Origin: Lolium rigidum
Lineage: Eukaryota; Streptophyta; Magnoliopsida; Poales; Poaceae
NCBI RefSeq assembly: GCF_022539505.1
Contig: NC_061513.1
Coordinates: forward strand, 347,773,617-347,837,616
DNA: 64,000 nucleotides
Reading direction: 5' to 3'
In this document: positions 7,675 through 60,000 of the stretch, one piece after another
How positions within the stretch are numbered: the stretch's first letter is position 1
Layout: the number at the start of each line of letters is the position of its first letter
Notes under the pieces: model-generated
Seen by the model: the letters and a program-made list of their open reading frames with translations, nothing else
What the model was told of the DNA's origin: nothing
Databases searched by the model: none
Made by a program: the position numbers and the translations under genes

Positions 7675-9156
7675 TGATACGTCCCAAACGTATCTATAAT
7701 TTCTTATGTTCCATGCTACTTTTATGATGATACTCACATGTTTTATACACATTATATGTCATTATTATGCATTTTCCGGCACTAACCTATTGACGAGATG
7801 CCGAAGAGCCAGTTGTTGTTTTCTGCTGTTTTTGGTTTCAGAAATCCTAGTAAGGAAATATTCTCGGAATTGGACGAAATCAACGCCCGGGGGCCTATTT
7901 TTACACGAAGCTTCCAGAAGACCGGAGGACTTACGAAGTGGGGCCACGAGGCGCCGCCACAACAGGGCGGCGCGGCCCAGGTGCTGGCCGCGCGGCCCTG
8001 GCGTGTGGGGCCCTCGTGTGGCCCCCTGACCTGCCCTTCCGCCTACTTAAAGCCTCCGTCGCGAAACCCCCAGTACGGAAAAGCCACGGTACGAGAAACC
8101 TTCCAGAGCCGCCGCCATCGCGAAGCCAAGATCTGGGGGACAGGAGTCTCTGTTGCCGGCACGCCGCCGGGACGGGGAAGTGCCCCGGAAGGCTCCTCCA
8201 TCGACACCACCGCCATCTTCATCAACGCTGTTGTCTCCCATGAGGAGGGAGTAGTTCTCCATCGAGGCTAAGGGCTGTACCGGTAGCTATGTGGTTAATC
8301 TCTCTCCTATGTACTTCAATACAATGATCTCATGAGCTGCCTTACATGGTTGAGATTCATATGAGTTTTGTATCACTATTCATCTATGTGTTACTCTAGT
8401 GATGTTATTAAAGTACTCTATTCCTCCTCCATGGTGTAAAGGTGACAGTGTGTGCATCATGTAGTACTTGGCGTAGGTTATGATTGTAATCTCTTGTAGA
8501 TTATGAAGTTAATTATTGCTATGATAGTATTGATGTGATCTATTCCTCCTTCATAGTGTGATGGTGACAGTGTGCATTCTATGTTAGTACTCGGTGTAAC
8601 TGCAATGATCTATCATGCACTCTAAGGTTATTTAAATATGAACATTGATTGTTGTGGAGCTTGTTAACTCCGGCATTGAGGTGCTCTTGTAGCCCTACGC
8701 AATTAGTGGTGTTCATCATCCAACAAGAGAGTGTAGAGTGGTTTTATTATGTGATCAATGTTGAGAGTGTCCACTAGTGAAAGTATGATCCCTAGGCCTT
8801 GTTTCCAAACATCGAATCTCCGTTTGTTTACTATTTTATTGCATGTTTACTCGCTGCCATATTTTATTCAGATTGCTATTGCCACTCATATTCATCCGTA
8901 CCACTTGTATTTCACTATCTCTTCGCCGAACTAGTGCACCTATACATCTGACAAGTGTATTAGGTGTGTTGGGGACACAAGAGACTTCTTGTATCGTGAT
9001 TGCGGGGTTGCTTGAGAGGGATATCTTTGACCTCTTCCTCCCTGAGTTCGATAAACCTTGGGTGATCCACTTAAGGGAAACTTGCTGCTGTTCTACAAAC
9101 CTCTGCTCTTGGAGGCCCAACACTGTCTACAAGAATAGAAGTACCCGTAGACATCA
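7675..9156 (+). repeat. 3' LTR of element A (1482 bp)
   Basis: Begins TGATACGTCC and ends GTAGACATCA; it matches the split 5' LTR with only scattered differences, so the insertion is fairly young. The first bases form an imperfect hairpin (ATACGT...ACGTAT). An uninterrupted frame at 7798-8271 exists only because the LTR is GC-rich there; it is broken in the 5' LTR, so I do not call it a gene. Confidence 0.93.
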
Positions 9157-10869
9157 GTTCTCCTCTCAAGTTAACAAACCGGGCTTCATCCAAAGGCTTA
9201 GTGAAAATATCCGCCAATTGGTAGGTTGTCCCCACATGAGTGAGATCAATATCCTTATTGGCAACATGGTCACGTAGGAAGTGATGGCGAATGTCAATAT
9301 GTTTGGTGCGACAATGTTGAACTGGGTTATTGGCGATCTTAATTGCACTTTCATTGTCACAAAGAAGAGGCACCATACCAAGAGACACACCATAGTCTTT
9401 CAAGGTTTGCTTCATCCATAACAATTGAGTGCAACAAGATGCCGCGGATATGTATTCGGCCTCGGCGGTGGATAAAGCGGTGGAGTTTTGTTTCTTGGAT
9501 GACCAACTCACCAATGACCGGCCAATAAATTGGCAAGCCCCGGAGGTAGACTTTCGATCAACCTTGTCACCGGCCCAATCGGAATCCGAATAGCCAATGA
9601 GTTCAAAGGTTGACCCCTTTGGATACCATAGCCCGAGAGTAGGAGTGAGAACAAGGTATCTTAGAATCCGTTTGACCGCCATTAAATGGCTCTCCTTGGG
9701 AGCGGATTGAAAACGAGCACACATCCCTACACTTAGCATGATATCCGGCCTAGAGGCACAAAGGTAAAGCAAGGATCCTATCATGGAACGGTATACCTTT
9801 ATGTCCACATCCTTCTCACCGTCACATGAGCCAAGTTGCCCCTTTACGGGCATGGGTGTCTTCATTGGGATTGCATTGGTCATGTTGAATTTCTTGAGCA
9901 TGTCCTTCACATACTTTTCTTGAGAGATGAAGGTGCCTTTTGCAAGTTGCCTCACTTGGAAGCCTAGGAAGAACTTCAACTCTCCCATCATGGACATCTC
10001 AAATTTCCTAGTCATCAATAGCTCAAAAGCTTTGTTATGATTGGGGTAGTTCCACCAAAGATAATATCATCAACATATATTTGACATATAAATAAGCCAC
10101 CCCCTTTAACCCGTTTGGTGAAAAGGGTGGAGTCGACCGTACCCATGCAAAACCCATCATGTAGTAAGAAATCCCTAAGGAACTCATACCAAGCACGTGG
10201 AGCTTGCTTGAGACCGTAGAGTGCCTTATGGAGTAAATACACGTGGTTGGGTCGGCATGGATCTTCGAAACCCGGGGGTTGAGCCACATATGCGGTTTCT
10301 TTTAGGGGACCATTCAAAAATGCACTTTTCACATCCATTTGATAGAGTTTGAAATTGTGGAAAGATGCAAATGCAAGCAAAAGACGAATAGCTTCAAGAC
10401 GGGCTACCGGCGCAAAGGTATCCTCAAAATCCATACCTTCTATTTGGGCAAACCCTTGCGCCACTAACCTTGCTTTGTTTCGTATGACAATGCCATTCTC
10501 ATCTTTCTTGTTCTTGAATACCCATTTGGTCCCAATAACATTGATGCGATGATCCTTGGGTCTCTCAACTAGAGACCATACTTCATTAAGAGTGAAACAC
10601 TCCAATTCTTCTTGCATGGCAATTACCCAATCCGGATCAAGCAAGGCTTCATGTACCTTGAGTGGTTCAAAACTAGACACAAAAGCATGGTGTTGACAAT
10701 AAGTGATAAGTAATGCATGGTGTCTACGAGTTACCACTCCTCTTGAGATGCTACCAAGGACTTGATCTACTTTCATGTCACTTGCCCTTGTAGCGGCCTT
10801 GATCTTCCGAATGGTTCCTTCATGATCAATGAATTCATCTCTTGCTAGTACTTGATCATGAGGGATCAC
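9157..10869 (-). pseudogene. Copia B reverse transcriptase and RNase H
   Basis: The first segment (10869-10015) carries the Copia RT: the TKWVFK start, RLVAQGF, the [11 protein letters not shown] block, and the catalytic YVDDIIFG. The second segment (10018-9157) continues with MGELKFFLGFQ and the RNase H blocks SDWAGD, TALSTAEAEY, HIDIRHHF and LADIFTKPLD. The frame changes between the segments at about 10017, and between RT and the upstream integrase segment at about 10867, so no continuous polyprotein can be made. The frame runs into the LTR of element A at 9156, which marks the insertion point. Confidence 0.93.
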
Positions 10870-12443
10870 TTGAGCTTGATCATTGTGGATGTCTCTTGAT
10901 CATCATCATGGTCTTGCTCAGTGGAATGAGGACTTTCTTCTTGTTCTTCGAAATGTGACTCATCTTGAGTGGAGGATGGTTCTTGAGTTGCACTTGATGG
11001 TTCGGCTTGAGTTGAGCTAGGCTCCACTTGAGTCGTGCTTGATACTTCTACTCCATCATCTTGATCATCATTATGAACTTCCATGGGCCGGATGTGTCCA
11101 ATGCCCATATGCTTGATGTCACTAGATGGATCATCATTATTACCTGCAACACATGGAACAACTTGCTCCACTTGGGAGCCATTATCCTCCAAGAACACCA
11201 CGTCACAAGATACTTCAATAGTCCCAGTGGACCGGTTGTAGTATCTATAGGCGTGAGAGTTCTCCACATATCCAACAAATATGCCCTCTATGGTTCTAGT
11301 TTCAAATTTACCGAGCATTGCTTTGTTGTTCTTAACAAGACATTTGCATCCAAAGACACGAATGTACATGACATTAGGCTTGTTACCTGTGAGATGCTCG
11401 TATGGAGTTTTGTTATGGAGGGGGCGGAGGAAGAGCCGGTTGGAGTAGTGGACAGCCGTAGAGATGGCTTCTCCCCAAAAGTTGTGGGGTGAGTTGAATT
11501 CACTCAACATGGTTCTTGCCATCTCAATGATAGTCCGGTTCTTCCTTTCAACAACACCATTTTGTTGAGGGGTGTATGGCGCCGAAAACTCATGCTTGAT
11601 GCCCTCATCATCGACAAACTCTTGCATGGTGTAGTTCTTGAACTCGGTGCCATTGTCGGTCCTAATCGCCTTGATCTCGGATTCATACATACGTTGAGCT
11701 TTCTTGGCGAAGGTGATGAACTCTCTATGGGTCTCGTCCTTAGACTTAAGGAGAAAGACCCAAGAGTATCTTGAGTAATCATCAACAATGACAAGTCCAT
11801 ACTTGCTCCCACCAAGAGTATCATAATGTGATGGCCCAAAGAGATCCAAATGAAGGAGCTCCAAAGGCCTAGATGTGGTGACGATACTCTTGATAGGATG
11901 TTTCTTCTTGAGTTGCTTTCCGGCTACACATGCACTGCAAACACGATCTTTCTCAAAAGAAATGCCGGTTAGTCCCACAATGTGTTCACCCTTTAGGAGT
12001 TGTTTAAGATTCCTCATGTTGACATGACCAAGGCGGTGATGCCACAACCAACCTTCGTCATGCTTGGCCGCCATTAGACATGTGGAGGGAGAGGAGCTCT
12101 CTTTCGAGAGGTCAACCACGTAAAGGTTGTTCTCCACATATCCAACGAGGACCAATTTGAGATTGTCACTCCTAAAGACTTTCACACAATAATTAGTAAA
12201 ATATGAATTGTAATCGGCATCGGCAAGATGATATATAGAAAGCAAGTTATAGCCAAGGGATTCAACAAGCATGACCGTCTCAAGGCACAAGTCCTTAGAG
12301 ATTGCCACCTTGCCGTACCCAAGTACCTTTCCCTTTGAGTTGTCACCAAAGGTGATGCTTGACTTCTTGTTGATGTCTTCAATGAATTGATCAAGCACAT
12401 CTCTTCCTCCGGTCATATGATTGGTGCATCCACTATCAAACAC
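10866..12443 (-). pseudogene. Copia B protease and integrase
   Basis: Starts inside the aspartic protease motif FDSGCTNHMTG. It continues with the pre-integrase zinc finger (HHRLGHVNMRNL with later CSAC), then the integrase core: LHLDLFGP, VDDYSRYSWVF, IRTDNGTEF, and TPQQNGVVERKNRTI with the catalytic Glu. The C-terminal part is a Gln/Ser/Glu/Asp-rich linker. The upstream junction with gag (12444-12481) contains a stop and a shifted frame; the downstream junction with RT is a frame change. Domain content is complete, but the copy cannot be translated as one protein. Confidence 0.93.
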
Positions 12444-12478
12444 CCATTTTGGACCACCGGAGGAATACCCCTACAAAA

Positions 12479-13621
12479 TTAAGTAGAGGATTTAGGAACC
12501 CATCGATTAATGGGTTCCTTTGCAATGGCAACAATATCTTTTGGTACCCAAATTGAGTACTCTCTATAAGCATAGCCATTATGAGGGCCAACATAGTTAG
12601 CATAAACATCACCATAATAATCAACAAATAAAGCATAGTGATTGTTTGGCCCCGTGCGGTCACCACTAGTGGCTTTGCCCTTTGAGGCTTTGCCATCATT
12701 AGTGACCTTCTTGTTCTTATCTTGAGCGGGCTTCTCCTTCTTGTAGTTGTTCTTCTTGTATGACTTGGGAGTATATCCAAGTCCAAACTTTTGATTGTTT
12801 GACCTTTGCTTACTCAAGAGGTCATCCAATCCCATCTTGTTCTTGGCGGTGGTGAACTTTGCAAGTTCCTTTGTTAACCTAACATTTTCCTCAAGAATAG
12901 ATGCTTGCTCACAAGAAGATTCATTAGGGTGATAGTCGAGACCATATTTAGTCACCAAAGATTCAAGATATGCATTGGTCTCAACATGCAAGGAGAGTTC
13001 CTCTTGTAAACGAACATGTTCCTCAACAAGCTTAGCATGCTCACTAGTAAAATAAGTGGAGGAACTAGCAAGCTTTTCAACAACAATGGGATCCTTCATT
13101 GATCCAAGAGCCTTTTTGTAGGTTTCTTGGAGTAGGTCATGGTTCTCTCCAAGTTTCTTGAGCTCATCCTTAACAAGCTTGTTAGCTCTTTCAAGGTGGT
13201 CAAGATCCCTAGTGAGAGAAGCATGAACAACTTCAAGCTCCTCCTTTGAGGCATGGAGCTCTTGAGTCAATGATTGAGCCCTATCAATAGTTTCTAGGTC
13301 CTTAACTTTATCAAGTTCATAAGTTTCAATTTGTTGCTTAAGGCCTTGAGATATGCACCTTTCGGTTTTTAGCTCTTGTCTTAGGAGATTGAATCTCCGT
13401 TCTTCTTCATTCAATTGATATTCTAATTCCTCAATGGACTCATCCTTTTCTTTGAGGGAGTCCATCAAGAAATCAAACTTGACAAGAGCTTCACCATGAA
13501 GGGTGCATCTAACATTGTAAAGTTCCTTAAGCACAATTAATTCTTCTTGATTTTCATTTTCATCATCAAGAACACTAGATAGAGAAGGTGGGGGTTCCAT
13601 TACCTTGGTTTCTCTTGCCAT
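12479..13621 (-). pseudogene. Copia B gag extension with long coiled coil (380 codons)
   Basis: Residues ~25-265 are Glu/Leu/Lys-rich with heptad-like spacing (LKEKDESIEELEYQLNEEER and following), predicting a long coiled coil. The tail is Lys/Asn-rich (SYKKNNYKKEKP) and then leads toward the protease. It lies between the zinc-knuckle gag segment and the protease, as in large cereal Copia polyproteins. The start codon overlaps the upstream stop as TAATG; I read this as a chance result of an indel. Confidence 0.8.
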
Positions 13622-15093
13622 TAGACAAGAGCCGACGATTGTAGAGGAGAGAGAGAGTCATCGGAGTCATCATCTTGAGTTGTTCTTGCCATGAAGGAAG
13701 AACCAACATCATTCTCCGTGGAGTAATCCTTGGAGTAGTCATATGTGAAGAGTGACACGGGCTTGGAGAAAGCCAAACCGGCCACTCCGGCCTCCTTCTC
13801 CTCATCTTCCTCTTCTTCATCGGACAAGTACTCGGCCCCAACAAAGGCTCTTCCCTTGTTCTTCTTGTATCGATCGTTGATTGGGTTTGGCTTCAATCTT
13901 AGCTTGACCCCTTTGATGAACTTTGGCTTGTCTACCATTTTCTCATAAGGGCACTCATTTGCAAAGTGGGTATCTTCATCACAGTTGTAGCAAGTTCTCT
14001 TCTTCTTCTTGTCATTGAGGAGCATTGGAAGCTTTCCCTTGTACTTCTTGGCAAAGAAGGCAAAGTCGGTAACAATGTCACTAGTTGAAGTCATCTCTTC
14101 CTCTTCTTCAATTTCATAGTCTTCTTCTCTTCCATGGTCAGCTCTAGCTTTGAGAGCAAGGTTGTGTGACGCTTCATGGTTGTGTGAGGGTTCATCAACA
14201 CGGTTCATTGCCATGAGCCTTTTTCCTGCCTTGGCCATGTTTTCATTGACGACCACATAGGAGACTAGATCATCGGAGTTCAGATCGGCACTCTTGGTCA
14301 TGATTTGCAAGTTGAGTGCAAGGTTGGTGTCTTGTTGCTTGATCGCAATCATAGCAATGACCTTGGACTTTATGAATGCTTCATTCATCTCGAAGCCGTC
14401 ATTGTACTTCTCAACTCCTTGTCCCTTGACCCTTACTCTAAGAGCACCAAGCCTTGCATAGGCATCGGCCACGGATTCTCCTTCTCGAATCATGAACTGG
14501 TGGGCCTCTTGCTTTGCGGTCTCATAAAGAGCTGATTGGATCAAATCGGTTCCCTCTTGGAGTACTACGATCCGATCCCACAACTCTTTAGCGGAGTCAA
14601 TGTCATTGACTTGATCAAGGAGCTTGCGGTTGATGCCACTTCTAATCTTGTCACGTGCGGAGGCATTGAGTTGACGGTTGTAGAATTCGGTGGAGGTCAA
14701 CCGAATGGGATCATGTGGCTACCGGTATCCATGAACAATGATCTCCCATAACTCCACACTGCAGCTGCGAATATGAGATTCCATAGCAGATTTCCAAAAA
14801 GGAAAGTGAGTTCCATCAAAATGGGGAACATTCCCACTATGGTTTATATGAGGCATGGGTGAAGTGTTTTTGGGATAGTCATGGTTAACTTCATGGTAAC
14901 CCCCTAGAGAGGCCGAAGCCGCACTAGGAGACCCACTAGTCAAGTTCTTAAGCATGGCAGACATCTCTGCCATTTGGCTTTGTAGCTCATCCTCCTTTTT
15001 CTTCTTCTCGGCATCATATGCCAAGAATCTAGATTTCATCTCTTTAACCGAAAGGTTAGAGTCTTCATCTAGACCCTCAAATATTTTATCCAT
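13621..15093 (-). pseudogene. Copia B gag (retrotransposon capsid and zinc knuckle)
   Basis: N-terminal segment 15093-14719 is separated from 14700-13621 by one in-frame TAG at 14719-14721; the frame is the same on both sides. The second segment contains the UBN2-type gag core (LWDRIVVLQEGT, then ESVADAYARLGAL) and one CCHC knuckle, CYNCDEDTHFANEC, near 13990. An acidic, Glu-rich stretch follows. The nonsense codon and the 3' frame change show loss of function. Confidence 0.92.
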
Positions 15094-29363: not shown

Positions 29364-31512
29364 CAGAACCTTGGGCGCCATGGTTTCGTCTTCCTCCTCC
29401 TCAGTCTCGACCGGCGAGATCAGCACAACGATCCCGGTCCGACTTGATGGCAACAACTTCACCCTGTGGAGAGGCCTAGCGCTGCCCAATCTGGCAGGCG
29501 CAAACCTCCACCTGCATCTCGACAAGACCGCCGTCGTCCCTGCGAAGACTGTGCAGCAGGGCACCGGCGACAAGGCTATCGCCGTTCCCAATCCAGAGTA
29601 TCACAATTGGTGGACTTAGGATCAGCGGGTTAAGGGTCTTCTCCTCGGATCAATGGGAGAGGACATGGCAGCGCAGCTCATCGGCTGCACGACGGCTGCA
29701 GAGGTGTGGGCATCCGTCCACGCCATGTTCGGCGCCCAAAGTCGGGCGAATATTCTCCATCTGCGTCGTCAGCTCCAGTCTCTCCGAAAGGAGGACATGA
29801 CCGCCAGCGCCTATATGCACAAGATGAAGGCACTGAGCGATGCTATGGCCGCCGCCGGGACAGTCGTTCCGGACGAGGATCTTATCGACTACATCGTCAC
29901 CGGGCTCGGGTCCTCCTACAGCACCGTCGCGGCCACCCTCAACTTCCGCACGACGCCCATCTCCTATGCCGAGTTCTATGCCAGCGTCCTCCAATTCGTG
30001 GCCATGCAGGTGCAGCAAGCTCATGCCGAGGGCTGGTCTTCCTCGGCCAACACTGCGGCTCGCCCAGGTCCGGGCAATGGCGCGCGCCCTCGTCCTGCCG
30101 ATCAGTACCAAGGAGGGGGCAGAAATTATCAAGGAGGAGGCAACCGTGGTGGCTACGGTAACGGCGGTGGTCAAGGCCGTGGCAATGGTTGCTACGATAA
30201 CGGTGGGAGTTATGGAAACCCCCGCAATGACGGCGGTGGTGGCCGTGGCCGTGGTAACGGCGGCCACAACAACGGTGGGGGCGGTGGCGGGAGCGGACGC
30301 AACGGACGTCGCTTCCATCCCCAGTGTCAACTCTGCGGTATCTGGGGTCATGATGCATATGATTGCCGCAATCGCTTCAACCATGACTTCCAACGCTCCG
30401 GCAACTCTGCCTCGACCAGCTCCAATGACAACAACCCATGGATCATGGACACGGGAGCCTCGGACCACTTCACCAGTGAATTAGAACGCCTCCAGCTCGC
30501 CGAACGCTACCCCGGCAAGGATCAGGTGCAAGTAGCAAATGGAACAGGTTTGTCTATTGCCCGTATTGGTCACTCTAATTTACCCGGTTCATCTCTTTGT
30601 TTGCAAAAGGTTCTTCATGTTCCAAATATTCGCAAGCACCTTCTTTCCGTCTATCGTCTTGTTTCGGATAACTATGTCTTTGTTGAATTTCATCGGGATT
30701 TTTTCTGTGTCAAGGACAAGGCAACGAGGAGGGTCATTCTTCTCGGTAGAAGTCGCGATGGTCTCTACCCAGTACCGTTCTGCAGAGCCTCTTCCTCCTC
30801 GCGTCGCGCCTGTTCGAGTAGCAAGGTCTCCCCTTCGCAATGGCATCAACGTTTTGGTCATCCATCCAATAATGTAGTTCAATATATTGGTAGAACAAAT
30901 AATCTTTTGTGTTCACAGTCAGACAATATATCTTTGGTGTGTGATGCTTGTCAACGCGCCAAAAGTCATCAATTACCATATACTGTGTCATCTGTGTTTC
31001 TGTTGCCTCACTTGAATTGGTTCATACTGATGTTTGGGGGCCTGCACGTACCTCCTCTGGTGGGTACAAGTACTATGTTAGTTTTGTGGATGATTATTCC
31101 CGTTTCTGTTGGATCTATCTTTTAAAACATAAGTCTGATGTTGAGCAGGTCTTCTATGCTTTCCAGGCTCATGTCGAGCGCCTCCTGAACGCTAAGATTA
31201 ATGCAGTTCAGTCTGATGGAGGTGGCGAGTATCAGCGCCTGTCTCGCTATTTTCAGCGCACGGGTGTGTCTCATCGTGTGTCATGTCCACACACTTCCCA
31301 GGAAAACGGGATCGCTTTCCTCCGCATCTTCGGATGTGCTTGTTGGCCTAGCCTACGCAAGTACAATACACACAAACTTGATCGCTCCAAAGCTTGCGTC
31401 TTCCTCGGGGCTACAGTCCGATGCATAAAGGGTACAAATGTCTAGATCGGTCCACGGGACGTATATATATATATCTCGTGATGTCGTTTTCGATGAAACA
31501 GTGTTTCCCTTC
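29364..31512 (+). pseudogene. Copia C gag, protease and integrase (5' half of polyprotein)
   Basis: The start codon lies at 22617, and 23 coding bases precede element D; the frame resumes exactly at 29364. Gag shows the UBN2-type core (AAEVWASVHAMFGAQSRA, LRRQLQSLRK), a Gly/Asn/Arg-rich spacer, and a CCHC knuckle CQLCGIWGHDAYDC near 30330. Then come the protease MDTGASDHFT, the pre-integrase finger (WHQRFGHPSNN, CDACQRAKSHQLPY) and the integrase core (VHTDVWGP, VDDYSRFCWIYL, QSDGGGEY). Defects: in-frame TAG at 29617-29619, a frame change near 31000, and loss of the SAERK-to-FLRIFGC segment near 31310 that removes the catalytic Glu region. Element E enters at 31513. Confidence 0.92.
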
Positions 31513-42295: not shown

Positions 42296-43168
42296 ATGGC
42301 GCCGGTGAAGGTGTTCGGGTCGGCGGCGTTCACGAACGTGGCTCGGGTGCTGGTGTGCCTGGAGGAAGTCGGCGCCGACTACGAGATCGTCGACATCGAC
42401 TTCCACGTCAAGGAGCACAAAGGCCCTGAACACCTCGCCAGAAACGTAAGAACCAACTGCAGTTCTTCTACTAGACATAGGAGAGACTCAGAGAAGTATT
42501 GGATTATAGAAGTATTGCGCCCTGGATGCTAATTTACCTACCCTGCTTTTCCCCAATCATCAGCCATTTGGACAGGTTCCGGCGTTCCAGGACGGCGACC
42601 TGATGCTGTTCCGTGAGCTCACTAACCTCTCTTCAAAATCACTATCAGCATTCAAGTAAAGTCAGTTTCTAGTTAGTTATACATCTCCATCTCCTCCACA
42701 GAGTCCCGAGCAATATCGCGGTACGTTCTGAGCAAGTACAAGACCGACGAGGTCAACTTGCTGAGGGAGGGAGAGGGCGACCCCGAGGAGTCCGCGCTCG
42801 TGGACGTCTGGCTGGACGTGGAGGCCCTCCAGTACGACCCCGCCATGAGCTCGGTCTTCTTCCAGCACCGCGTCGTGCCGGCGCTGGGCGGGACGCCGGA
42901 TGAAAGCTTCATTGGCGAGAGCGTCGAGAAGCTGAAGAATGTGCTGGACGTGTACGAGGCCCGGCTGACGAAGCACAGGTACCTGGCGGGGGATTTCGTG
43001 AGCCTGGCGGACCTCAGCCATTTCCCCGAGGCGCACTACTTCATGGAGTTGCCATACGCGGCGGTGTTCGACTCGTACCCTCGCGTCAGGGCGTGGCTGG
43101 AGGATCTGTTCGCCAGACCGGCAGTCAAAAAGGTCGTCTCCCTCATGGCCAATGACTTTAGTGGATGA
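42296..43168 (+). CDS. GSTF: Glutathione S-transferase, phi class (GSTF), 3 exons
   Basis: Exons 42296-42445, 42564-42612 (49 bases, the usual phi-class exon 2) and 42702-43168 join in frame to 221 codons. Introns have GTAAGA...CAG and GTGAGC...ACAG ends. The thioredoxin-like domain covers residues ~3-80: VKVFG start, FTNVARVLVCLEEVG, NPFGQVPAFQDGD with the cis-Pro, then QSRAISRY. The helical domain follows (ALVDVWLDVEAL, YEARL..HRYLAGDFVSLADLSH). GSTFs conjugate glutathione to electrophiles and herbicides in the cytosol. Oddity: Phe stands where most phi GSTs have the catalytic Ser (S.TNVARV). It faces the SKP1-prolidase gene tail to tail. The upstream region was altered by insertion of Copia C. 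Confidence 0.92.
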
Positions 43169-44129: not shown

Positions 44130-45998
44130 TTAGTTCTTAGCACGCAAAGGCCAATGTGCGCCGGCCATCACCGCTTCGATTTCCCAGGTCTCTCTTGGGC
44201 AATTTGTCATGTTCTTGCATCCTTGGGCGGTCACATACAAATTACTCTCAATACGAACGCCACCAAACCTTTTATAATTTTCAATCACTTCCCACTTGAA
44301 GAACTTTGAGGAAATTGGGTCATCTCTAACAGGCCCCAGCAAAGCATCGATGAAGTAACAGCCTGACTCGACAGTAATAACCATCCCTTCTTTAAGTTCT
44401 CTAATGGTTCGCAAGGCGCTTAGTCCTGGCTCCTTTGGCCTCTCCGAGCCTTCAGGGTAGCCTCCAACATCATGGGTGTCAATTCCAAGTAAGTGCCCAA
44501 GACCATGAGGCATGAAAAGAGCTCCCAGCCTTCGAGCCATCATATCGCCAATATCACCTTGGATGATGTTTTCTTTCTCTAAAGATTCCAATATTCTTTG
44601 CTCTGCCAGCTTGTGCATATCAATCCATTTTACTCCCGGGCGCATATGTGATATAACGGCATTATGAGCCTCAAGGACAGCATTGTATACTACTGTCTGG
44701 TGTCTATTAAATCTCCCATTTATAGGGTATGAACATGTGATGTCGGTGCCATAGAAATGGTATTCAGCTCCCATGTCCATCAGAGCCATGTCTCCATCCA
44801 CTAGTGTCCGGTCATTTGGAGCTGCAGCATGCCCATAATGTAGTACAGAACTGTTCTCTCCGGTAGCACATATACAAGTGTAGGAGCAATGTCGGCAGGC
44901 TCCGTACATGTAAGCGTGATGAAGAAAGATGCTTTCTAACTGAAATTCCTTCATTCCTGGTTTCGCTCGTCTCATAACCTCAATGTGTGCTTCTGAGCTA
45001 ACATCATTAGCGTACTGAAGGACGGCAAGCTCCATATCAGACTTTATAACACGACATTCAGTTATGATAGGATGAAGCGTGCTCGAGTCGGTGTCAAAGT
45101 ACTTGTCCATGCCTTCAAAGCTAGCAGGTTTCGAGTAATTTCCACTGTCGGTGCTCTTTCCATGTAAGAGGAAAAGAAGAGGCTTCCCATGCTCATCACT
45201 GGACTGATTTTGCAAGACCTGTGCAAGCTCATCAACATAGAAGACCTTGTCAACCTTGTACATATCCTTGAAATAAGACGATGGTTTTATTTGACCCATC
45301 CAGACAGCGTAGGCAGGTGGCAACCTTGGAGCGAATAGGATGGACTCTCCGGAGGCAATGTCGAGTGCGCCATAGAAGCCGGGCTCTCGCACGCCGAAGA
45401 GATAGGCAAAGTAGCTCTCCTGCCTGAAAAGCTCGACGTGATCGGTAGAGTCACGAGTCCGCTCCTCGCCGCCCTGGAGGAGGACAAGGCCACGGAGAGG
45501 GCGGGTGGAGGCGGTGAGATGGGCACGGAGCGCAGCGACGAGTCGCTCGCGGTTGCCGGCGTGCAATTCCATAGGCACTCTGGGTGGAGCAAGAGCGGAA
45601 GAAATCTTCTCTGGCGTCTTCCGACGACTCGTCCGGTCGGCCACCGTCTTACAGGCCAGGCCCAAGAGACCCTGCACGTCGAGGTAGTTGGCGGCGAGGA
45701 TGAGGCTCATCAACGTGTCATGGTCCATTCCGCCGACGAAGTCGGCGTCGAAGCGCTCCAGGTCGGGGTTGACGACGGCATGCGCGGCCTCATAGTGACA
45801 GGTGCAGTAGTCGACAACGCGAGCGAGGATGCGGCCGGTCACCTTAGGCAGCGGGATCACGCCGGCGCCGGCGCCCGCGCCGTCGTCCTCCAGCATGTCC
45901 CGGATCAGCATGGACGCCGCCGCCATAGTCTCTGCCTGGACCACGAGCTCCTCGCCGTCCGAGCTGCGGAGCATCACGGTTTTGCTGCTAGTCACCAT
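44130..45998 (-). CDS. SKP1 domain fused to Xaa-Pro dipeptidase (prolidase), single exon, 622 aa
   Basis: Start chosen at 45998 (GCAATGG context, where SKP1 proteins begin); the frame is open back to 46085. Residues ~5-60 match the SKP1 POZ fold (MLRSSDGEELVV, VIPLPKVTGRILARVVDYC). Residues ~88-130 match the SKP1 dimerisation part (FDADF, LILAANYLDVQGLLGLACKT, KTPE). The C-terminal F-box-binding end of SKP1 is absent. From residue 143 a full prolidase follows (480 aa): AMP_N-like domain, then the M24 pita-bread domain with all five metal ligands: DMGAEYHF, TDITCSYP, MPHGLGHLLG, VITVESG and GGVRIES. Prolidases cleave Xaa-Pro dipeptides in the cytosol. The usual VEPG is VESG here. No intron interrupts 1.87 kb, suggesting a retrocopy. 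The fusion is seen in sequence; its expression is not. Confidence 0.85.
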   Translation of the reverse strand: MVTSSKTVMLRSSDGEELVVQAETMAAASMLIRDMLEDDGAGAGAGVIPLPKVTGRILARVVDYCTCHYEAAHAVVNPDLERFDADFVGGMDHDTLMSLILAANYLDVQGLLGLACKTVADRTSRRKTPEKISSALAPPRVPMELHAGNRERLVAALRAHLTASTRPLRGLVLLQGGEERTRDSTDHVELFRQESYFAYLFGVREPGFYGALDIASGESILFAPRLPPAYAVWMGQIKPSSYFKDMYKVDKVFYVDELAQVLQNQSSDEHGKPLLFLLHGKSTDSGNYSKPASFEGMDKYFDTDSSTLHPIITECRVIKSDMELAVLQYANDVSSEAHIEVMRRAKPGMKEFQLESIFLHHAYMYGACRHCSYTCICATGENSSVLHYGHAAAPNDRTLVDGDMALMDMGAEYHFYGTDITCSYPINGRFNRHQTVVYNAVLEAHNAVISHMRPGVKWIDMHKLAEQRILESLEKENIIQGDIGDMMARRLGALFMPHGLGHLLGIDTHDVGGYPEGSERPKEPGLSALRTIRELKEGMVITVESGCYFIDALLGPVRDDPISSKFFKWEVIENYKRFGGVRIESNLYVTAQGCKNMTNCPRETWEIEAVMAGAHWPLRAKN

Positions 45999-46112: not shown

Positions 46113-46126
46113 AAATATATATAAAT
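46113..46126 (-). promoter_or_regulatory. TATA box of the SKP1-prolidase gene
   Basis: ATTTATATATATTT on the minus strand lies about 115 bases upstream of the chosen ATG. This places transcription start near 46085, so the first usable ATG would be the SKP1 one at 45998. Confidence 0.55.
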
Positions 46127-46665: not shown

Positions 46666-47533
46666 TGTTAGACCAATATGCTTGTTGTATTACCAGGGGG
46701 CCAAAGGCCACAATATATAGTACATGTACAGGTGCAAATATGCAGGAAGCCCCCTAACATATGGGGAAACTACAATATACAGATATATACTTCTAACACA
46801 CTCCCCCCCTCAAACTCATGGTGGATCCACAACACTGAGTTTGGAGAGTAAGAAATCATGCTGCGCTCGAGTCTGTGCCTTCGTAAAGAAATCCGCCAAC
46901 TGCAAATCTGAAGGCACATAATGAACCGTAACAACATCATCCTGCACCTGAGCATGTGTGTAAAAGACATCCACAATACGTTTTTTTTTCAGAATCAACT
47001 CATATCAGATCGGAATTAGGTACCGATCGAATAGATGTCGGTCGAAAATCACCTGCAAGACGTAGGACGACAGCGGGAGATGACCCGGGCGGAGGCGAGG
47101 CGAGCGGGCCGATTCCCGGCTGGGCGAGAGCGGGGGCCGACGGGCAGAGCGGGGAATCGAGCGCAGGGGCGAAGCAGGGGGAGGACGAACCAGCGACGGC
47201 CGGAGAAGATCGGGGCGAGCCGGGCAGGCGGCGGGGATGGTAGAGGACGGCCCAGCGACGGCCGGGAAGAGGAGTTCCGGCGACGGCCGGGAAGATAAGG
47301 TTTGGCGATGGTCGGGAAGAAGCCGGCGGCGGGGCGGCCGGGAACAAGTCTTCAAGAAAAACGTCTGTAGGGAGAGGAGGACCAATTTTGCTCTGATACC
47401 ATGTTAGGCCAATATGCTTGTTGTATTACCAGGGGGCCAAAGGCCACAATATATAGTACATGTACAGGTGCAAATTTGCAGGAAGCCCCTAACATATGGG
47501 GAAACTACAATATACACATATATACATCTAACA
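46666..47533 (-). mobile_element. Copia element F, internal deletion derivative (868 bp)
   Basis: Two LTRs of 132-133 bp (46666-46798 and 47402-47533; TGTTAG...CTAACA) flank only 0.6 kb. On the minus strand a tRNA-iMet primer site (complement at 47390-47401) follows the right LTR. Next are a GC-rich leader and the last ~55 codons of a Copia polyprotein with DLQLADFFTKA, ending at 46816. A purine tract lies next to the left LTR. Flanks GTGCA and GTGCC are probable target duplications with one change. The element kept only the ends needed for replication in trans. Confidence 0.88.
46816..46998 (-). pseudogene. Copia F polyprotein C-terminal remnant
   Basis: Codes for DVVTVHYVPSDLQLADFFTK and a short basic tail, the end of Copia RNase H. 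Everything from gag to most of RNase H is missing. Confidence 0.82.
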
Positions 47534-51664: not shown

Positions 51665-53924
51665 GTTTTGGAGAGATTCTGGTAGAAGGAGAATTTCTTG
51701 ACGAAGGCGGCTACCAGCATTGGAGTGAAGGCTAGCAAAGGGAAACACTGTTTCATCAAAGACAACATCGCGTGAAATATAAACACGGCCAGAAGCAATG
51801 TCGAGACATTTAACACCTTTGTGCATATGACTATAGCCAAGGAAGACACATTGTTTGGAACGAAAGGCTAATTTTCTTTGATTGAAGGGACGAAGATTAG
51901 GCCAGCATGCACAACCAAAAAACACGAAGAGAAGCATAATCTGGTGTTTTGTGGAGTAGTCGTTCCATGGGTGTTTCATGATTAATGACCTTGCTAGGCA
52001 ACATGTTAATGAGATGTGTGGCGGTTAGGAAGGCTTCATCCCAAAATTTGAGTGGCATGGATGCATCTGCAAGAAGAGCAAGGCCAACTTCAACAATGTG
52101 GCGATGCTTTCTCTCGGCAGAGCCATTTTGCCGATGTGCATGGGGACATGACACATGATGCTCAATGCCTATCTTTCGAAAGAAGGAATTTAATTTCTCA
52201 TATTCACCACCCCAATCGGATTGGATGGCTAGAATTTTTTCGTCAAATTGGCGTTCAACAAGTTGCCGAAAATTATGAAACACTTGGAAAACATCGGATT
52301 TTTTCTTGAGAAGATAAATCCATGAAAATTTACTAAAATCATCGATGAAGCTTACATAGTACTCATATTTCCCTACAGACATAGGTGCTGGTCCCCATAC
52401 ATCGGAGAACACAAGTTGCAAGGGATATGTAGATGCACTAGTAGACCTCTCATAAGGGAGTTGGTGGCTTTTGGCTCTTTGGCAAGAGTCACAAACCGAC
52501 TCAATGCTAGGTTTATTTGAATGGGGAAGTTCATAATTGCTAAGAACTTGTTGAACAATGCGAAAGGAAGGATGTCCTAAACGACTATGCCATCTGACAG
52601 CTGAAGGCTTGGAGATGCTAAAGGCATGTTTATTCTTGATGGATGGTGAAGATATCAACGGGTAGAGGCCACGCACACATCGTCCTTTAAGAAGAATTTT
52701 CTTCGTTGCCTGATCCTTGACATAAAAATACCACGGGTGAAATTCAATAAACACTTGATTATCTCTAGTAAAGCGATGAACTGAGACAAGGTTTTTGGTG
52801 GTATGTGGAACATGAAGAACATTTTTTAGATGCAAGGATTTAGAGGGGGTTTTAACAATTGCATGACCAACATGACTAATGTTCATACCTTGTCCATTGG
52901 CCGCATGAATCTGCTCACGGCCGGTGTATTTCTCCTTCATGGTGAGCTTGTTGAGCTCACCGGTGATGTGGTCGGTGGCGCCCGTGTCACCATACCAGTT
53001 GGTGTCCACGCCGTATGATGCAACGTTGGCGCCCTTCTCCTCTTCTTCTTCATCCTCGGAGTAGCGGTGCCAGCACTTCCGAGCCTCATGGCCCGGCTTG
53101 CCACGGATTTGGCGAGTGACAAGGTCACGGTCCTTGTGGCCGCTCCTCGCCTCCTCCACGACGGCCACCATTGCCGCCGCGCGCGCCGACGGCCATGGCC
53201 ACGGCTGCTGTAGCCCCGGCCTCCTCTGCATCCGCCACGTCCACGCGGTCCGCCACGTCCGCGCTGCGCCGAGTTGACGGAGGAACCTCCGCCGGTGTCA
53301 CCACCAAGCAGCTCGATGCGGCTGTCGTAGGCGCAGACCTGGGCGTACAGGTCGCCCACGGTGAGATCTTCTGCTCCATTAACCCCAATGGCGGCGAAGA
53401 GAGGGTTGTAGGATTCGTCGAGGCCGGCGAGGAGATACTCGACGAGCTCTTCTTCATCAATTGGCCGGCCCGCTGCGGCGAGCTCATCAGCGAAGCCCTT
53501 CATCTTGGTGAAGAACTGGGCCGTGGTCATGTTCTCCTTTTTGTTTTGGCCGGTGCGACGCGCAGATTGGAGATGCGCGTTCGGGACCGTGAGGCGAACA
53601 TGGACTTGATCGCGCTCCAGACATCTGCCGCTGTTTCCATCCCAATAACAGAGATGAGAATATCAGGTGAGAGAGTATTTAGCAGGAACGATAGAACCTG
53701 CTGATCCGTCGCCACCCATGCGTCGTAGGCTGGGTTGGCCTCCTGGGGCGGCTTGCCGTCTTTTTCGACGGTGATGGTTTCCGGCGGAGCATCCGTCTTG
53801 GTGTCGAGGAAGCTCGTCAGACGGGCTCCACGGATCGGCGGAAGAACTCGTGGACTGCCGAGAGAAGGTAGTTGGATCTGGTCAGCTTCTCGCTCACGGC
53901 TAGACCGGCTAAGGGATTCGTCAT
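51665..53924 (-). pseudogene. Copia G gag, protease and integrase (truncated)
   Basis: Gag starts at 53924 (MTNPLAGLAVSEKLTRSNYL) but meets a frame change and TGA near 53830. The core continues with VATDQQVLSFLLNTLSPDIL, AADVWSAIKSMFASRSRTRI and DELAAAGRPIDEEELVEYLL, then an Arg/Gly-rich tail. A later frame gives GDTGATDHITGELNKLTMK (protease), WHSRLGHPSF and CDSCQRAKSHQLPY (zinc finger), then the integrase core: VFSDVWGP, IDDFSKFSWIY, QSDWGGEY, NGSAERKHRHIVEV. Frame changes occur near 53540, 53100 and 51930. The last codons at 51665 encode the region after FDETVFPF. Confidence 0.9.
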
Positions 53925-56726: not shown

Positions 56727-58532
56727 CTAGTTCTTAGCACGCAAAGGCCAATGCGCGCCGGCCATCACCGCTTCGATTTCCCAGGTCTCTCGTGGGCAAT
56801 TTGTCATGTTCTTGCATCCTTGGGCCGTCACATACAAATTACTCTCAATACGAACACCACCAAACCTTTTATAATTTTCAATCACTTCCCACTTGAAGAA
56901 CTTTGAGGAAATTGGGTCATCTCTAACAGGCCCCAGCAAAGCATCGATGAAGTAACAGCCTGGCTCGACAGTAATAACCATTCCTTCTTTAAGTTCTCTA
57001 ATGGTTCGCAAGGCGCTTAGTCCTGGCTCCTTTGGCCTCTCTGAGCCTTCAGGGTAGCCTCCGACATCATGGGTGTCAATTCCAAGTAAGTGCCCAAGAC
57101 CATGAGGCATGAAAAGAGCTCCCAGCCTTCGAGCCATCATATCGCCAATATCACCTTGGATAATGTTTTTTTTCTCTAAAGATTCCAATATTTTTTGCTC
57201 TGCAAGCTTGTGCATATCAATCCATTTTACTCCCGGGCGCATGTGTGATATAACGGCATTATGAGCCTCAAGGACAGCGTTGTATACTACCGTCTGGTGT
57301 CTGTTAAATCTCCCATTTATAGGGTATGAACATGTGATGTCGGAGCCATAGAAATGGTATTCAGCTCCCATGTCCATCAGAGCCATGTCTCCGTCCACTA
57401 GTGTCCGGTCATTTGGAGCTGCAGCATGCCCATAATGCAGTACAGAACTGTTCTCTCCGGTAGCACATATACAAGTGTAGGAGCAATGTCGGCAGGCTCC
57501 GTACATGTAAGCGTGATGAAGAAAGATGCTTTCTAATTGAAATTCCTTCATTCCTGGTTTTGCTTGTCTCATAACCTCAATGTGTGCTTCCGAGCTAACA
57601 TCATTAGCGTACTGAAGGACGGCAAGCTCCATGTCAGACTTTATAACACGGCATTCAGTTATGATAGGATGAAGCGTGCTCGAGTCGGTGTCAAAGTACT
57701 TGTCCATGCCTTCAAAGCTAGCAGGTTTCGAGTAGTTTCCACTGTCGGTGCTCTTTCCATGTAAGAGGAAAAGAAGAGGCTTCCCATGCTCATCACTGAA
57801 CTGATTTTGCAAGACCTGTGCAAGCTCATCAATATAGAAGACCTTGTCAACCTTGTACATATCCTTGAAATAAGACGATGGCTTTATTTCACCCATCCAG
57901 ACAGCGTAGGCAGGTGGCAGCCTTGGAGCGAATAGGATGGACTGTCCGGAGGCGATGTCGACTGCGCCATAGAAGCCGGGCTCTCGCACGCCGAAGAGAT
58001 AGGCAAAGTAGCTCTCCTGCCTGAAAAGCTCGACGTGATCGGTAGAGTCACGAGTCCGCTCCTCGCCGCCCTGGAGGAGGACAAGGCCACGGAGAGGGCG
58101 GGTGGAGGCGGAGAGATGGGCACGGAGCGCAGCGACGAGTCGCTCGCGGTTGCCAGCGTGCAATTCCATGGGCACTCTGGGTGGAGCGAGAGCGGAAGAG
58201 ATCTGCTTCGCCGGCGTCTTCCGACGACTCGTCCGGTCGGCCACCGTCTTACAGGCCAGGCCCAAGAGACCCTGCACGTCGAGGATGAGGGTCATCAACG
58301 TGTCATGGTCCATTAATTCCGGGCGTCGAAGCGCTCCAGGTCGGGGTTGACGACATACGCTGCCGCGCGCGTAGTGACAGTTGCAGTAGTACATCGACGA
58401 CGCGAGTTTTGGTTTTGTGTCTGGAATGGACGGAAGAATTAAGCGCGTTTGTTGGCGGCTCGGTGGATCGGTAGCTGGAGCCAGCCAGGCAAAGGCAAAC
58501 CTCCTTGGAACGGAATTAAGGATGACCCCCAA
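56727..58532 (-). CDS. Xaa-Pro dipeptidase (prolidase), second copy, with decayed SKP1 remnant
   Basis: The prolidase part (start-equivalent Met at 58169; 480 aa) is about 98 percent identical to the copy at 44130-45998; I count about 11 substitutions. All five metal ligands are kept (DMGAEYHF, SDITCSYP, MPHGLGHLLG, VITVEPG, GGVRIES), with the canonical VEPG. Upstream, a SKP1 remnant remains (MDHDTLM, DVQGLLGLACKTVADR, KTP) but has lost the LAANYL segment and the whole POZ part. Homology ends at about 58407, and the frame then runs into unrelated sequence to 58532. The true start is unclear: 58532, 58313 (Met of the remnant) or 58169. No intron. No obvious promoter. Confidence 0.78.
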   Translation of the reverse strand: MGVILNSVPRRFAFAWLAPATDPPSRQQTRLILPSIPDTKPKLASSMYYCNCHYARGSVCRQPRPGALRRPELMDHDTLMTLILDVQGLLGLACKTVADRTSRRKTPAKQISSALAPPRVPMELHAGNRERLVAALRAHLSASTRPLRGLVLLQGGEERTRDSTDHVELFRQESYFAYLFGVREPGFYGAVDIASGQSILFAPRLPPAYAVWMGEIKPSSYFKDMYKVDKVFYIDELAQVLQNQFSDEHGKPLLFLLHGKSTDSGNYSKPASFEGMDKYFDTDSSTLHPIITECRVIKSDMELAVLQYANDVSSEAHIEVMRQAKPGMKEFQLESIFLHHAYMYGACRHCSYTCICATGENSSVLHYGHAAAPNDRTLVDGDMALMDMGAEYHFYGSDITCSYPINGRFNRHQTVVYNAVLEAHNAVISHMRPGVKWIDMHKLAEQKILESLEKKNIIQGDIGDMMARRLGALFMPHGLGHLLGIDTHDVGGYPEGSERPKEPGLSALRTIRELKEGMVITVEPGCYFIDALLGPVRDDPISSKFFKWEVIENYKRFGGVRIESNLYVTAQGCKNMTNCPRETWEIEAVMAGAHWPLRAKN

Positions 58533-60000
58533 ACGCGCGCCCCGTGTCTATCTCTATCGAGGAGGCGGTGATCGCGTGACCCGATCGCGCGCGGTTACCG
58601 GCTTACCGCCCGCGTGGCCGTACGTGCGTGACTAACTCGCACCGATCATAGTTGATGAAGAAAAAAAAAAGTCCCTGGAATTTCCCTAGGTACCGACGAA
58701 GCTGAATTAATTACCACCAAATGAGCCACCGTTAAAAAGAAGGAAGCTCCGCTTCATCAAAAGGAAAGAACGATCCCAGCGCGTTCCAGGCTCGCTACGC
58801 AAATTCCACCGCTCCTAAATTCTGGCCGCGCCACCTAAAATACTCTCTCAACATATAAATAAGACCCACTAATCTATACATATAAATCTACTCTCTTAAA
58901 ACATATACTACCTTCATTCAGCTAGTAATAGTACTAGTTAATCTAATTATTAACCAGCTAATAACCAACAACGCTTAATTCAGCAGTTCAAATATTTGGC
59001 CGACTTTCACAACTCCACGAGACAATTAAATACTACTAGTGCTCATCTGGGTCACACAACTCCACGATACATCTAATAGACTGAAAACACAAGTCTGATC
59101 CAAGAACTCAAGATTACAGATACCACGCAAATCCCAGGACAACTACTTCACTTGCTTCACTTGTATTGTATTACAACAAACTCTCCTACTCATGTCATCT
59201 GGAGCATGAATATTACAGCCACAAATCCTAACCCCAAAAAATTCCTCCAGTTTCATCGAATCCTAGCAACAGCTCTCCTTCTCTGATTGATTGGTGGGTA
59301 CCAAAGCAACAAAATGAAACCCACAGCTTCAATAAAACTCCTTCGACTTAAAGATGTCAAACAAAATCAATAACAGGCAGCATCAGCAACTCGAAGAAAG
59401 ATGTAGTCGACCAATCTGAAAAAGGCAGAAAAAAAAAAGGAACTTGCGTATATGTTGAGGGTAGTATCGAACAAGTATGAATTCTTAATAGCCACAGGTA
59501 ATAAGCAACACCAACAGCCATTTCTGTCAAAAAAAAGTTCAGAGTATTAATCAAGAGATCCCTCCTGCCATTAATAACAGCAATATCACTATCACAAAAA
59601 CGCTTAACGGTTGCACCAAATCATTCAAGTTATCACTGAATGTGCTAGTTAGTAGTTGAAATCGCATTGCATTAATATAAACAGAACAAGATCATGCATA
59701 TGATTTTAATCATAGGCAGGAAGTTGAGTCCCAGAACCACATGTGCATCACCAAAGAGTAGTTGCGTTTATCCCATTTCAAAATAAAAAAAATGAAGCAG
59801 GGTATAGTGCTGAATGTTATGGCCAGATCAACAACACTTGCAGAAACATAAAACTTCAGAAAGTTTCAATGCTAATCATAAAAATTTAATTACCGAACGC
59901 TAAACATGGCTAATGTTGCTAAACAGGTGCGCATCCTAATTACAGAGGACTCTAATGGAACCCTTAAGCTGACATAAAGGGGGAAAAAATCAACCTTTGA
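58533..60000. other. No gene recognised
   Basis: AT-rich, stop-rich sequence after a short GC-rich stretch (58540-58640). I find no protein domain, LTR or tandem array. Confidence 0.5.

What the first reader, a model, noticed from the sequence alone, without database searches (positions are those of the whole stretch)
44130..45998. SKP1 domain fused in frame to a full-length prolidase
Seen: one uninterrupted minus-strand frame of 622 codons begins as a SKP1 protein (POZ part, FDADF, LILAANYLDVQG, KTPE) and continues, with no stop or intron, into a complete prolidase with all five metal ligands. A TATA box sits about 115 bases upstream of the SKP1 ATG. Known: the SKP1 N-terminus binds CUL1 and its C-terminal helices bind F-box proteins; here the C-terminal helices are replaced by the peptidase. 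Inference: the protein could bring prolidase to CUL1, or use a CUL1 complex without an F-box protein. I know of no described SKP1-peptidase fusion.
Basis: partly seen in the sequence, partly recalled or inferred. Interest (0 to 1): 0.87.

Follow-up and report, generated by a model that had tools for sequence, protein, structure and literature searches.

The report
SKP1–prolidase chimeric retrogene in ryegrass
A ryegrass gene really does join the front part of SKP1, a ubiquitin-ligase adaptor, to a nearly whole proline dipeptidase copied from spliced messenger RNA; related grasses carry the same join, but what the SKP1 part does is not known.

Summary
The window (probably Lolium rigidum) has an intact 622-codon minus-strand ORF, 45998-44130: a SKP1 POZ region lacking the last F-box-binding helices, joined to a nearly complete M24 prolidase with all five metal ligands.

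It is a chimeric retrogene. The parent prolidase on contig C2 lies in 16 coding blocks; its introns are absent from the copy. The closest stand-alone SKP1 genes found lie about 76 and 199 kb from that parent.

It is not an artefact. The genome has three intact fusions; L. perenne and Festuca glaucescens have orthologues. Alopecurus aequalis shares junction and C-terminus, but its model lacks about 170 prolidase residues. No further SKP1+M24 protein appeared among 2037 candidates.

The prolidase part is constrained (dN/dS 0.10-0.20). The SKP1 part is only suggestively so (5 synonymous, 2 nonsynonymous changes, p 0.011; a site-pattern test was not significant). Three L. rigidum paralogues lost an intact SKP1 part yet keep a constrained prolidase. 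Most likely a working prolidase with a folded SKP1-derived head; CUL1 docking is possible, untested.

The parts
44130..45998 (-). SKP1-prolidase fusion ORF, 622 codons plus stop
45609..45998 (-). SKP1 POZ part, codons 1-130 (ends KTPE); lacks the last F-box-binding helices
   Evidence: Pfam PF03931; alignments; AF2 model of residues 1-137, mean pLDDT 84; Foldseek's five best rows are ASK1-containing complexes
45602..45609 (-). junction of SKP1 part and retrocopied prolidase
   Evidence: parent homology starts at window 45602; same junction in P0191 of Alopecurus aequalis
44139..45602 (-). prolidase retrocopy; introns of the C2 parent gene absent
   Evidence: 16 collinear blocks with the parent; GT-AG introns found at 14 of 15 joins
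45198..45563 (-). AMP_N domain (residues 146-267)
44226..45020 (-). Peptidase_M24 domain (residues 327-591)
44247..44777 (-). span holding the five metal ligands D408, D419, H502, E544, E584; residue 545 is Ser where relatives have Pro
46116..46123 (-). TATATATA stretch, begins 125 bases upstream of the ATG
   Evidence: the flank shared with the other full copies reaches 46222 (L024) or 46199 (L025)
56727..58169 (-). second prolidase retrocopy in the window (from the MELHAG methionine)
58233..58388 (-). decayed SKP1 remnant of the second copy (5' half missing, frame changed, internal deletion)
42677..43168 (+). C-terminal region of a GST gene, convergent with the fusion and copied along with it
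   Evidence: Pfam GST_C; copies at 88% identity or more only in the two C6 clusters

Best explanation
A chimeric retrogene with one origin, older than the Lolium-Alopecurus split. Spliced prolidase mRNA was reverse-transcribed (shown by the missing introns), and its coding part became joined in frame to the first ~130 codons of a SKP1-like gene (the join is shown, the route is not). The gene encodes a two-part protein: a SKP1 POZ head that ends around helix 6, followed by a prolidase with intact metal ligands. Inferred function: the main job is Xaa-Pro dipeptide hydrolysis by a duplicated prolidase. The SKP1 gene gave it a start codon and possibly a promoter, and the head adds a folded dimerisation or docking module (self-dimer, CUL1 or SGT1) rather than a complete SCF adaptor, because the F-box-wrapping C-terminus is missing.
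For: Intact ORF and domains. Metal ligands conserved. The parent has introns and the copy has none: 16 blocks, GT-AG at 14 of 15 joins. Three full copies in the genome. P0002 (L. perenne), P0003 (F. glaucescens) and P0191 (A. aequalis) share the junction and the C-terminal AKN. The fusion prolidases form one clade (98/97); the fusion SKP1 parts group apart from the C2 genes (100/99), with one fragment of unknown origin, P0133, among them. Prolidase dN/dS 0.10-0.20 in all 15 pairs of six copies. SKP1 part among the three full copies: 5 synonymous, 2 nonsynonymous, one-sided p 0.011. The SKP1 part is predicted to fold (pLDDT 84) and its best structural matches are ASK1 complexes. Truncated Skp1 lacking helices 7-8 folds and homodimerises through helices 5-6 (PMC12101541, passages). 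The Skp1 POZ domain carries the CUL1 and SGT1 surfaces (PMC5282575, passages).
Against: SKP1-part constraint is weak. The pairwise counts are tiny and depend on where the part is cut: syn:nonsyn 5:1, 4:2, 1:1 (Fisher p 0.004, 0.03, 0.43), or 5:1, 5:3, 2:2 with the junction codons in. dN/dS against the C2 SKP1 genes is ~0.5. Changes within fusions do not significantly avoid family-conserved columns (p 0.12, 0.09, 0.08). Absence of stops since Alopecurus is no test (about one expected). Three L. rigidum paralogues lost an intact SKP1 part. The Alopecurus model lacks about 170 prolidase residues, probably through a frameshift. The window copy has Ser for a near-invariant Pro beside a metal ligand. 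No RNA or protein evidence was available.
Confidence: 0.5

Rival explanations
1. Hitch-hiking: the SKP1 gene only supplied promoter, 5' UTR and start codon. The SKP1 head is an inert N-terminal extension under little selection, and the gene is simply an extra prolidase.
For: Three of six near-complete L. rigidum copies have no intact SKP1 part but keep prolidase under purifying selection (pairs L026-L027, L026-L030, L027-L030: dN/dS 0.12-0.20; Fisher p 7e-6, 3e-9, 5e-8). SKP1 part dN/dS ~0.5 against C2 genes. Site-pattern test not significant. [quoted passage not shown]
Against: 5:2 synonymous to nonsynonymous in the three full copies (p 0.011). 34 of 37 family-conserved SKP1 residues kept in the window copy and 31 of 37 in Alopecurus. 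SKP1 frame open in four species.
Confidence: 0.35
2. Single-chain CUL1 adaptor or poison: the POZ head docks on CUL1 and the prolidase acts as substrate receptor or passenger, so that no F-box protein is needed, or CUL1 is sequestered.
For: The POZ region that faces CUL1 is present and folds like ASK1. LAANYLDVQGLL and most other near-invariant SKP1 residues are kept. Precedent of a retrocopy fused to a ubiquitin-ligase gene: TRIM5-cyclophilin A (PMC5408686, passages).
Against: No interaction data. The F-box also contributes to CUL1 binding in SCF (recalled). SKP1-less paralogues persist. In Alopecurus the prolidase half looks damaged.
Confidence: 0.12
3. Assembly or annotation artefact, or a plain pseudogene.
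For: One gene model (Alopecurus) seems to hold a frameshift; three near-complete copies have decayed SKP1 parts.
Against: Three intact copies in this genome and the same fusion in proteins of L. perenne and F. glaucescens. Prolidase dN/dS 0.10-0.20.
Confidence: 0.03

Closest known systems
Plant SKP1-like proteins (ASK type; nearest found in this genome C2 L022/L023, 168-aa type)
   Same: POZ fold and most near-invariant residues up to KTxE
   Different: the C-terminal part (Pfam PF01466, last helices) is replaced by a peptidase
Plant Xaa-Pro dipeptidase (prolidase, M24; relatives of human PEPD 2iw2)
   Same: AMP_N + M24, five metal ligands, about 74-85% identity to the SKP1-free grass prolidases listed
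   Different: intronless; N-terminal SKP1 head; the last 15 codons of the parent replaced by KN-stop
Chimeric retrogenes of grasses (rice; PMC6881317 abstract, PMC5408686 passages)
   Same: intronless copy of a multi-exon parent that has joined foreign coding sequence
   Different: domain pair found only in Lolium, Festuca and Alopecurus in the database searched
TRIM5-cyclophilin A fusion of owl monkey (PMC5408686, passages)
   Same: a retrocopy joined to a ubiquitin-ligase component
   Different: TRIM5 is the ligase itself (recalled); here the partner is an adaptor fragment and function is untested
Truncated Skp1 homodimer (Dictyostelium, PDB 6V88; PMC12101541 passages)
   Same: Skp1 without its C-terminal region, ending near helix 6 as this head does
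   Different: engineered construct, not a natural fusion

Membership tests
SKP1 family | Skp1_POZ domain (PF03931) | tested here: met
   E 2.9e-13, residues 7-68
SKP1 family | C-terminal Skp1 dimerisation / F-box-binding domain (PF01466) | tested here: not met
   absent from the Pfam hits and from the alignments; only chance-level C-terminal hits downstream
SKP1 family | binds CUL1 and F-box proteins | not testable with these tools
   needs an interaction assay
M24 prolidase (Xaa-Pro dipeptidase) | AMP_N plus Peptidase_M24 domains | tested here: met
   PDB best hit 2iw2, E 1.2e-162
M24 prolidase (Xaa-Pro dipeptidase) | five metal ligands D, D, H, E, E | tested here: met
   D408, D419, H502, E544, E584
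M24 prolidase (Xaa-Pro dipeptidase) | Pro after the first of the two Glu ligands (EPG); near-invariant, not formally defining | tested here: not met
   Ser in the window copy; Pro in the other two full copies; among P0001-P0121 a motif search gave Pro in 119, Ser in 1, no match in 1
M24 prolidase (Xaa-Pro dipeptidase) | hydrolyses Xaa-Pro dipeptides | not testable with these tools
   needs an enzyme assay
chimeric retrogene | intronless copy of a multi-exon parent | tested here: met
   16 blocks, GT-AG introns at 14 of 15 joins
chimeric retrogene | joined in frame to unrelated coding sequence | tested here: met
chimeric retrogene | poly-A tail and target-site duplication, or LTR-element flanks | tested here: inconclusive
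   no parent 3' UTR homology; no formal search for target-site duplications or LTRs was made; the event is old (dS ~0.6)

The most novel reading that the evidence does not exclude
Pooid grasses evolved a single-chain, F-box-free CUL1 adaptor. The POZ head of a SKP1 docks on CUL1 (or SGT1), and a retrocopied prolidase in the same chain acts as substrate receptor or locally delivered peptidase, much as BTB-substrate-receptor proteins do for CUL3 (the comparison is recalled).
Probability: 0.12. Interest if true: 0.85.

Novelty: new variant of a known kind. Interest (0 to 1): 0.5.

Why it matters
The domain pair was found only in a few related grasses. The full frame is intact in Lolium and Festuca, the same join exists in Alopecurus, and the retrocopy can be traced to a parent gene that is still present. 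Paralogues that lost the SKP1 half, and an Alopecurus model that seems to have lost the peptidase half, form a natural experiment on whether the two halves need each other. If the head binds CUL1, it would be a CUL1 adaptor that bypasses F-box proteins.

Tried and rejected
(1) Assembly artefact: rejected, because three full copies and the same fusion in other species exist. (2) Retrocopy inserted into an SKP1 gene with the SKP1 3' end left downstream: four SKP1 C-terminal pieces gave only chance-level hits downstream of the fusion in the window and in the paralogue loci; the lowest E-value of a C-terminal-piece hit away from the known SKP1 parts was 0.002, at 53120, inside a retroelement frame. 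This does not exclude later loss. (3) Parent 3' UTR at the retrocopy end: the best local score beyond the stop was 26 against a maximum of 27 in 50 shuffles, so no homology. (4) An empty site elsewhere: the 3' flank was found at length only in the two C6 clusters, other hits being short repeat pieces, but only 40 of 80 candidates were scored. The 5' flank search scored 40 of 2443 candidates and returned mostly a high-copy repeat at window 46666-46975; it did not even list the flanks of the other two full copies, so it decides nothing. (5) Co-origin of both halves from C2: the closest SKP1 genes found flank the parent prolidase, but both are on the opposite strand and the synonymous distances differ somewhat (SKP1 0.39-0.43; prolidase about 0.62), so the joining route stays open. 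(6) P0122, an 83% 'stand-alone' SKP1: its first 82 aa equal the L. perenne fusion and its last 81 aa equal P0127, overlapping in PDLERFD; in L. rigidum the two genes share 20 identical bases there, so I read it as an assembly chimera, not a parent gene (inference). (7) The AF2 model of the whole fusion had low confidence over the SKP1 part (34-69 by block of ten), probably from a poor joint alignment; I used a separate SKP1-part model instead. (8) The first prolidase tree, without P0191, put the fusions near the base of Pooideae; with P0191 they lie inside Pooideae (100/98), their place there is unresolved, and grouping with Poeae parents is not rejected (p 0.365). (9) CUL1-contact residues from print: searches gave nothing usable. 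(10) Divergence dates: passages of PMC11655881 and PMC13260365 gave no Lolium-Alopecurus date. PMC6054272 (passages) was seen but not used.

Full report
Observation. The minus-strand frame 45998-44130 encodes 622 residues without an internal stop. Pfam gives Skp1_POZ (7-68), AMP_N (146-267) and Peptidase_M24 (327-591). The SKP1 part runs to KTPE (codon 130). Aligned with stand-alone SKP1 proteins, it lacks the C-terminal stretch, and Pfam's C-terminal SKP1 domain PF01466 is absent. The prolidase part matches human PEPD (2iw2, E 1.2e-162), and the five metal ligands plus H255, H366, H377, R398 and R450 (human numbering, list recalled) are conserved. The TATATATA stretch begins 125 bases upstream of the ATG.

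Species and copies. The genome search places the window at G000:C6:347773617-347837616. The genome has three full in-frame fusions (window; C6:347944441, 98%; C6:258535898, 97%), three copies with SKP1 cut or decayed (C6:258480029 and C6:347864857, each with a stop; the second copy of this window, C6:347830346), and one fragment (C6:347921742). All seven lie in two clusters on C6. Pieces of a GST gene at 88% identity or more also occur only in these clusters; the next full-length relatives are on C7 at 61%, with one 40-residue piece there at 68%.

Origin. The parent prolidase lies on C2 (protein matches from 89464799 to 89473294) in 16 blocks collinear with the copy. GT-AG introns fit at 14 of the 15 joins; the remaining join has an alignment gap and was not resolved. 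The copy has none of these introns, so it derives from spliced RNA. Homology starts near parent codon 4 and stops 15 codons before the parent's stop, with no UTR homology. The closest stand-alone SKP1 genes found in the genome (68% and 67%; the next are at 53% or less) lie at C2:89388067 and C2:89672174, about 76 kb and 199 kb from the parent prolidase (71 of 101 candidates were scored). In a 2.44-Gb genome this is unlikely to be chance (inference) and hints that both halves came from one neighbourhood, but both SKP1 genes are on the opposite strand, and the route (insertion, read-through transcript or template switch) is open. Synonymous distances are about 0.62 (prolidase against parent) and 0.39-0.43 (SKP1 against C2).

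Relatives. A whole-protein search found P0002 (L. perenne, 620 aa, 97%) and P0003 (F. glaucescens, 619 aa, 95%) with all three domains; only the best 120 of 1659 hits were listed. A search scoring only residues 1-136, with candidate lengths set by the whole protein, gave 4 hits at E <= 1e-5 among 2037 candidates: these two, P0191 of Alopecurus aequalis (446 aa), and a fungal protein with a full SKP1 and an enoyl-CoA-hydratase-like part, which is a different fusion. The search reaches only relatives that share short exact words, so more distant fusions could be missed. P0191 has the same junction (..DKT|SSSLAPP) and the same C-terminal AKN but lacks about 170 residues, including two metal ligands. 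The peptide SSMLMSLHR at the gap equals another reading frame of the Lolium DNA, so the model probably hides a frameshift behind a false intron (inference, Alopecurus DNA not seen). The fusion prolidases form one clade (98/97) inside Pooideae (100/98). The fusion SKP1 parts group apart from the C2 genes (100/99), with an unplaced fragment P0133 among them. A single origin before the Lolium-Alopecurus split is the simplest reading.

Selection. Prolidase part: dN/dS 0.10-0.20 in all 15 pairs of six copies, including the three without an intact SKP1 part (0.12-0.20; Fisher p 7e-6, 3e-9 and 5e-8). SKP1 part, up to KTPE: among the three full copies 5 synonymous and 2 nonsynonymous changes over 93 and 291 sites, one-sided p 0.011. 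The counts are small and shift with the cut: pairwise 5:1, 4:2 and 1:1 (Fisher p 0.004, 0.03, 0.43), or 5:1, 5:3 and 2:2 with the junction codons included. Results against SKP1 constraint: dN/dS about 0.5 against the C2 SKP1 genes; variation within fusions is lower at family-conserved columns but not significantly (p 0.12, 0.09, 0.08 at three thresholds); zero stops since Alopecurus is uninformative (about one expected). In favour, 34 of 37 family-conserved residues are kept in the window copy and 31 of 37 in Alopecurus. Identity between L. rigidum and Alopecurus is 73% in the SKP1 part and 84-88% in two prolidase pieces of the fusion, against 92% between parent-type prolidases (P0012, an unnamed sequence next to the L. 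rigidum parent in the tree, against P0005). The fusion evolves faster than the parent, its head fastest.

How it may work. AlphaFold2 predicts the SKP1 part to fold (mean pLDDT 84, pTM 0.78), with helices to residue 126 and a low-confidence stub after it. Foldseek's five best rows are ASK1-containing complexes. Published passages say that the Skp1 POZ domain binds CUL1 and, on a shared surface, SGT1, while a C-terminal extension of about 35 residues folds around the F-box (PMC5282575, passages read); and that Skp1 cut before helices 7-8 still folds and homodimerises through helices 5-6 (PMC12101541, passages read). The head thus keeps the parts needed for self-association and possibly CUL1 or SGT1 docking but not the F-box clamp. 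I judge an enzyme with an added dimerisation or docking head most likely (0.5), an inert head next (0.35), and a true single-chain CUL1 adaptor least likely of these three (0.12). None of these functions was tested here.

What is in print. One search (at least three of prolidase, SKP1, fusion, Lolium) listed 8 papers, none on this by title and start of abstract. One search (at least three of chimeric retrogene, plant genomes, retroposition, SKP1) held 27 papers; none of the 20 listed shows such a fusion by title and start of abstract. The wheat SKP1 family paper PMC6650978 has no mention of prolidase, peptidase or Lolium in its main text (word search). Chimeric retrogenes in rice are described (PMC6881317, abstract; PMC5408686, passages). 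So the mechanism is known, and these searches found no description of the domain pair.

Noticed in passing
window 42677-43168 (+) and C6 clusters near 258.5 and 347.9 Mb: A GST gene region convergent with the fusion is copied with it: pieces at 88% or more occur only in the same two C6 clusters; the next full-length relatives are at 61%. One copy has two stops and one is split.
   Followed up: partly
window 56727-58547 (-), L026, L027: SKP1-decayed prolidase copies share a different 5' flank; the Festuca fusion P0003 carries YVV and DLVR residues that fit this lineage, so two fusion lineages may predate the Lolium-Festuca split.
   Followed up: partly
residue 545 of the fusion (within window 44247-44777): The window copy has Ser where the other two full copies and 119 of 121 listed proteins have Pro next to a metal-ligand Glu; it may impair this copy alone.
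   Followed up: partly
G000:C2:89388067 and C2:89672174 (L022, L023): Two nearly identical SKP1-like genes (dS 0.017) flank the parent prolidase gene at about 76 and 199 kb.
   Followed up: partly
P0017, P0020, P0023, P0031, P0034, P0038, P0048 (Triticeae): Triticeae have a second, divergent prolidase clade (100/99) without an SKP1 domain.
   Followed up: no
P0192 (Modicella reniformis): A fungal gene model joins a full SKP1 to an enoyl-CoA-hydratase-like domain; fusion or mis-annotation not tested.
   Followed up: no
window 9071-14718 (-), 29620-31445 (+), 51897-53297 (-): Copia-like retroelement reading frames, judged by eye from the ORF list.
   Followed up: no
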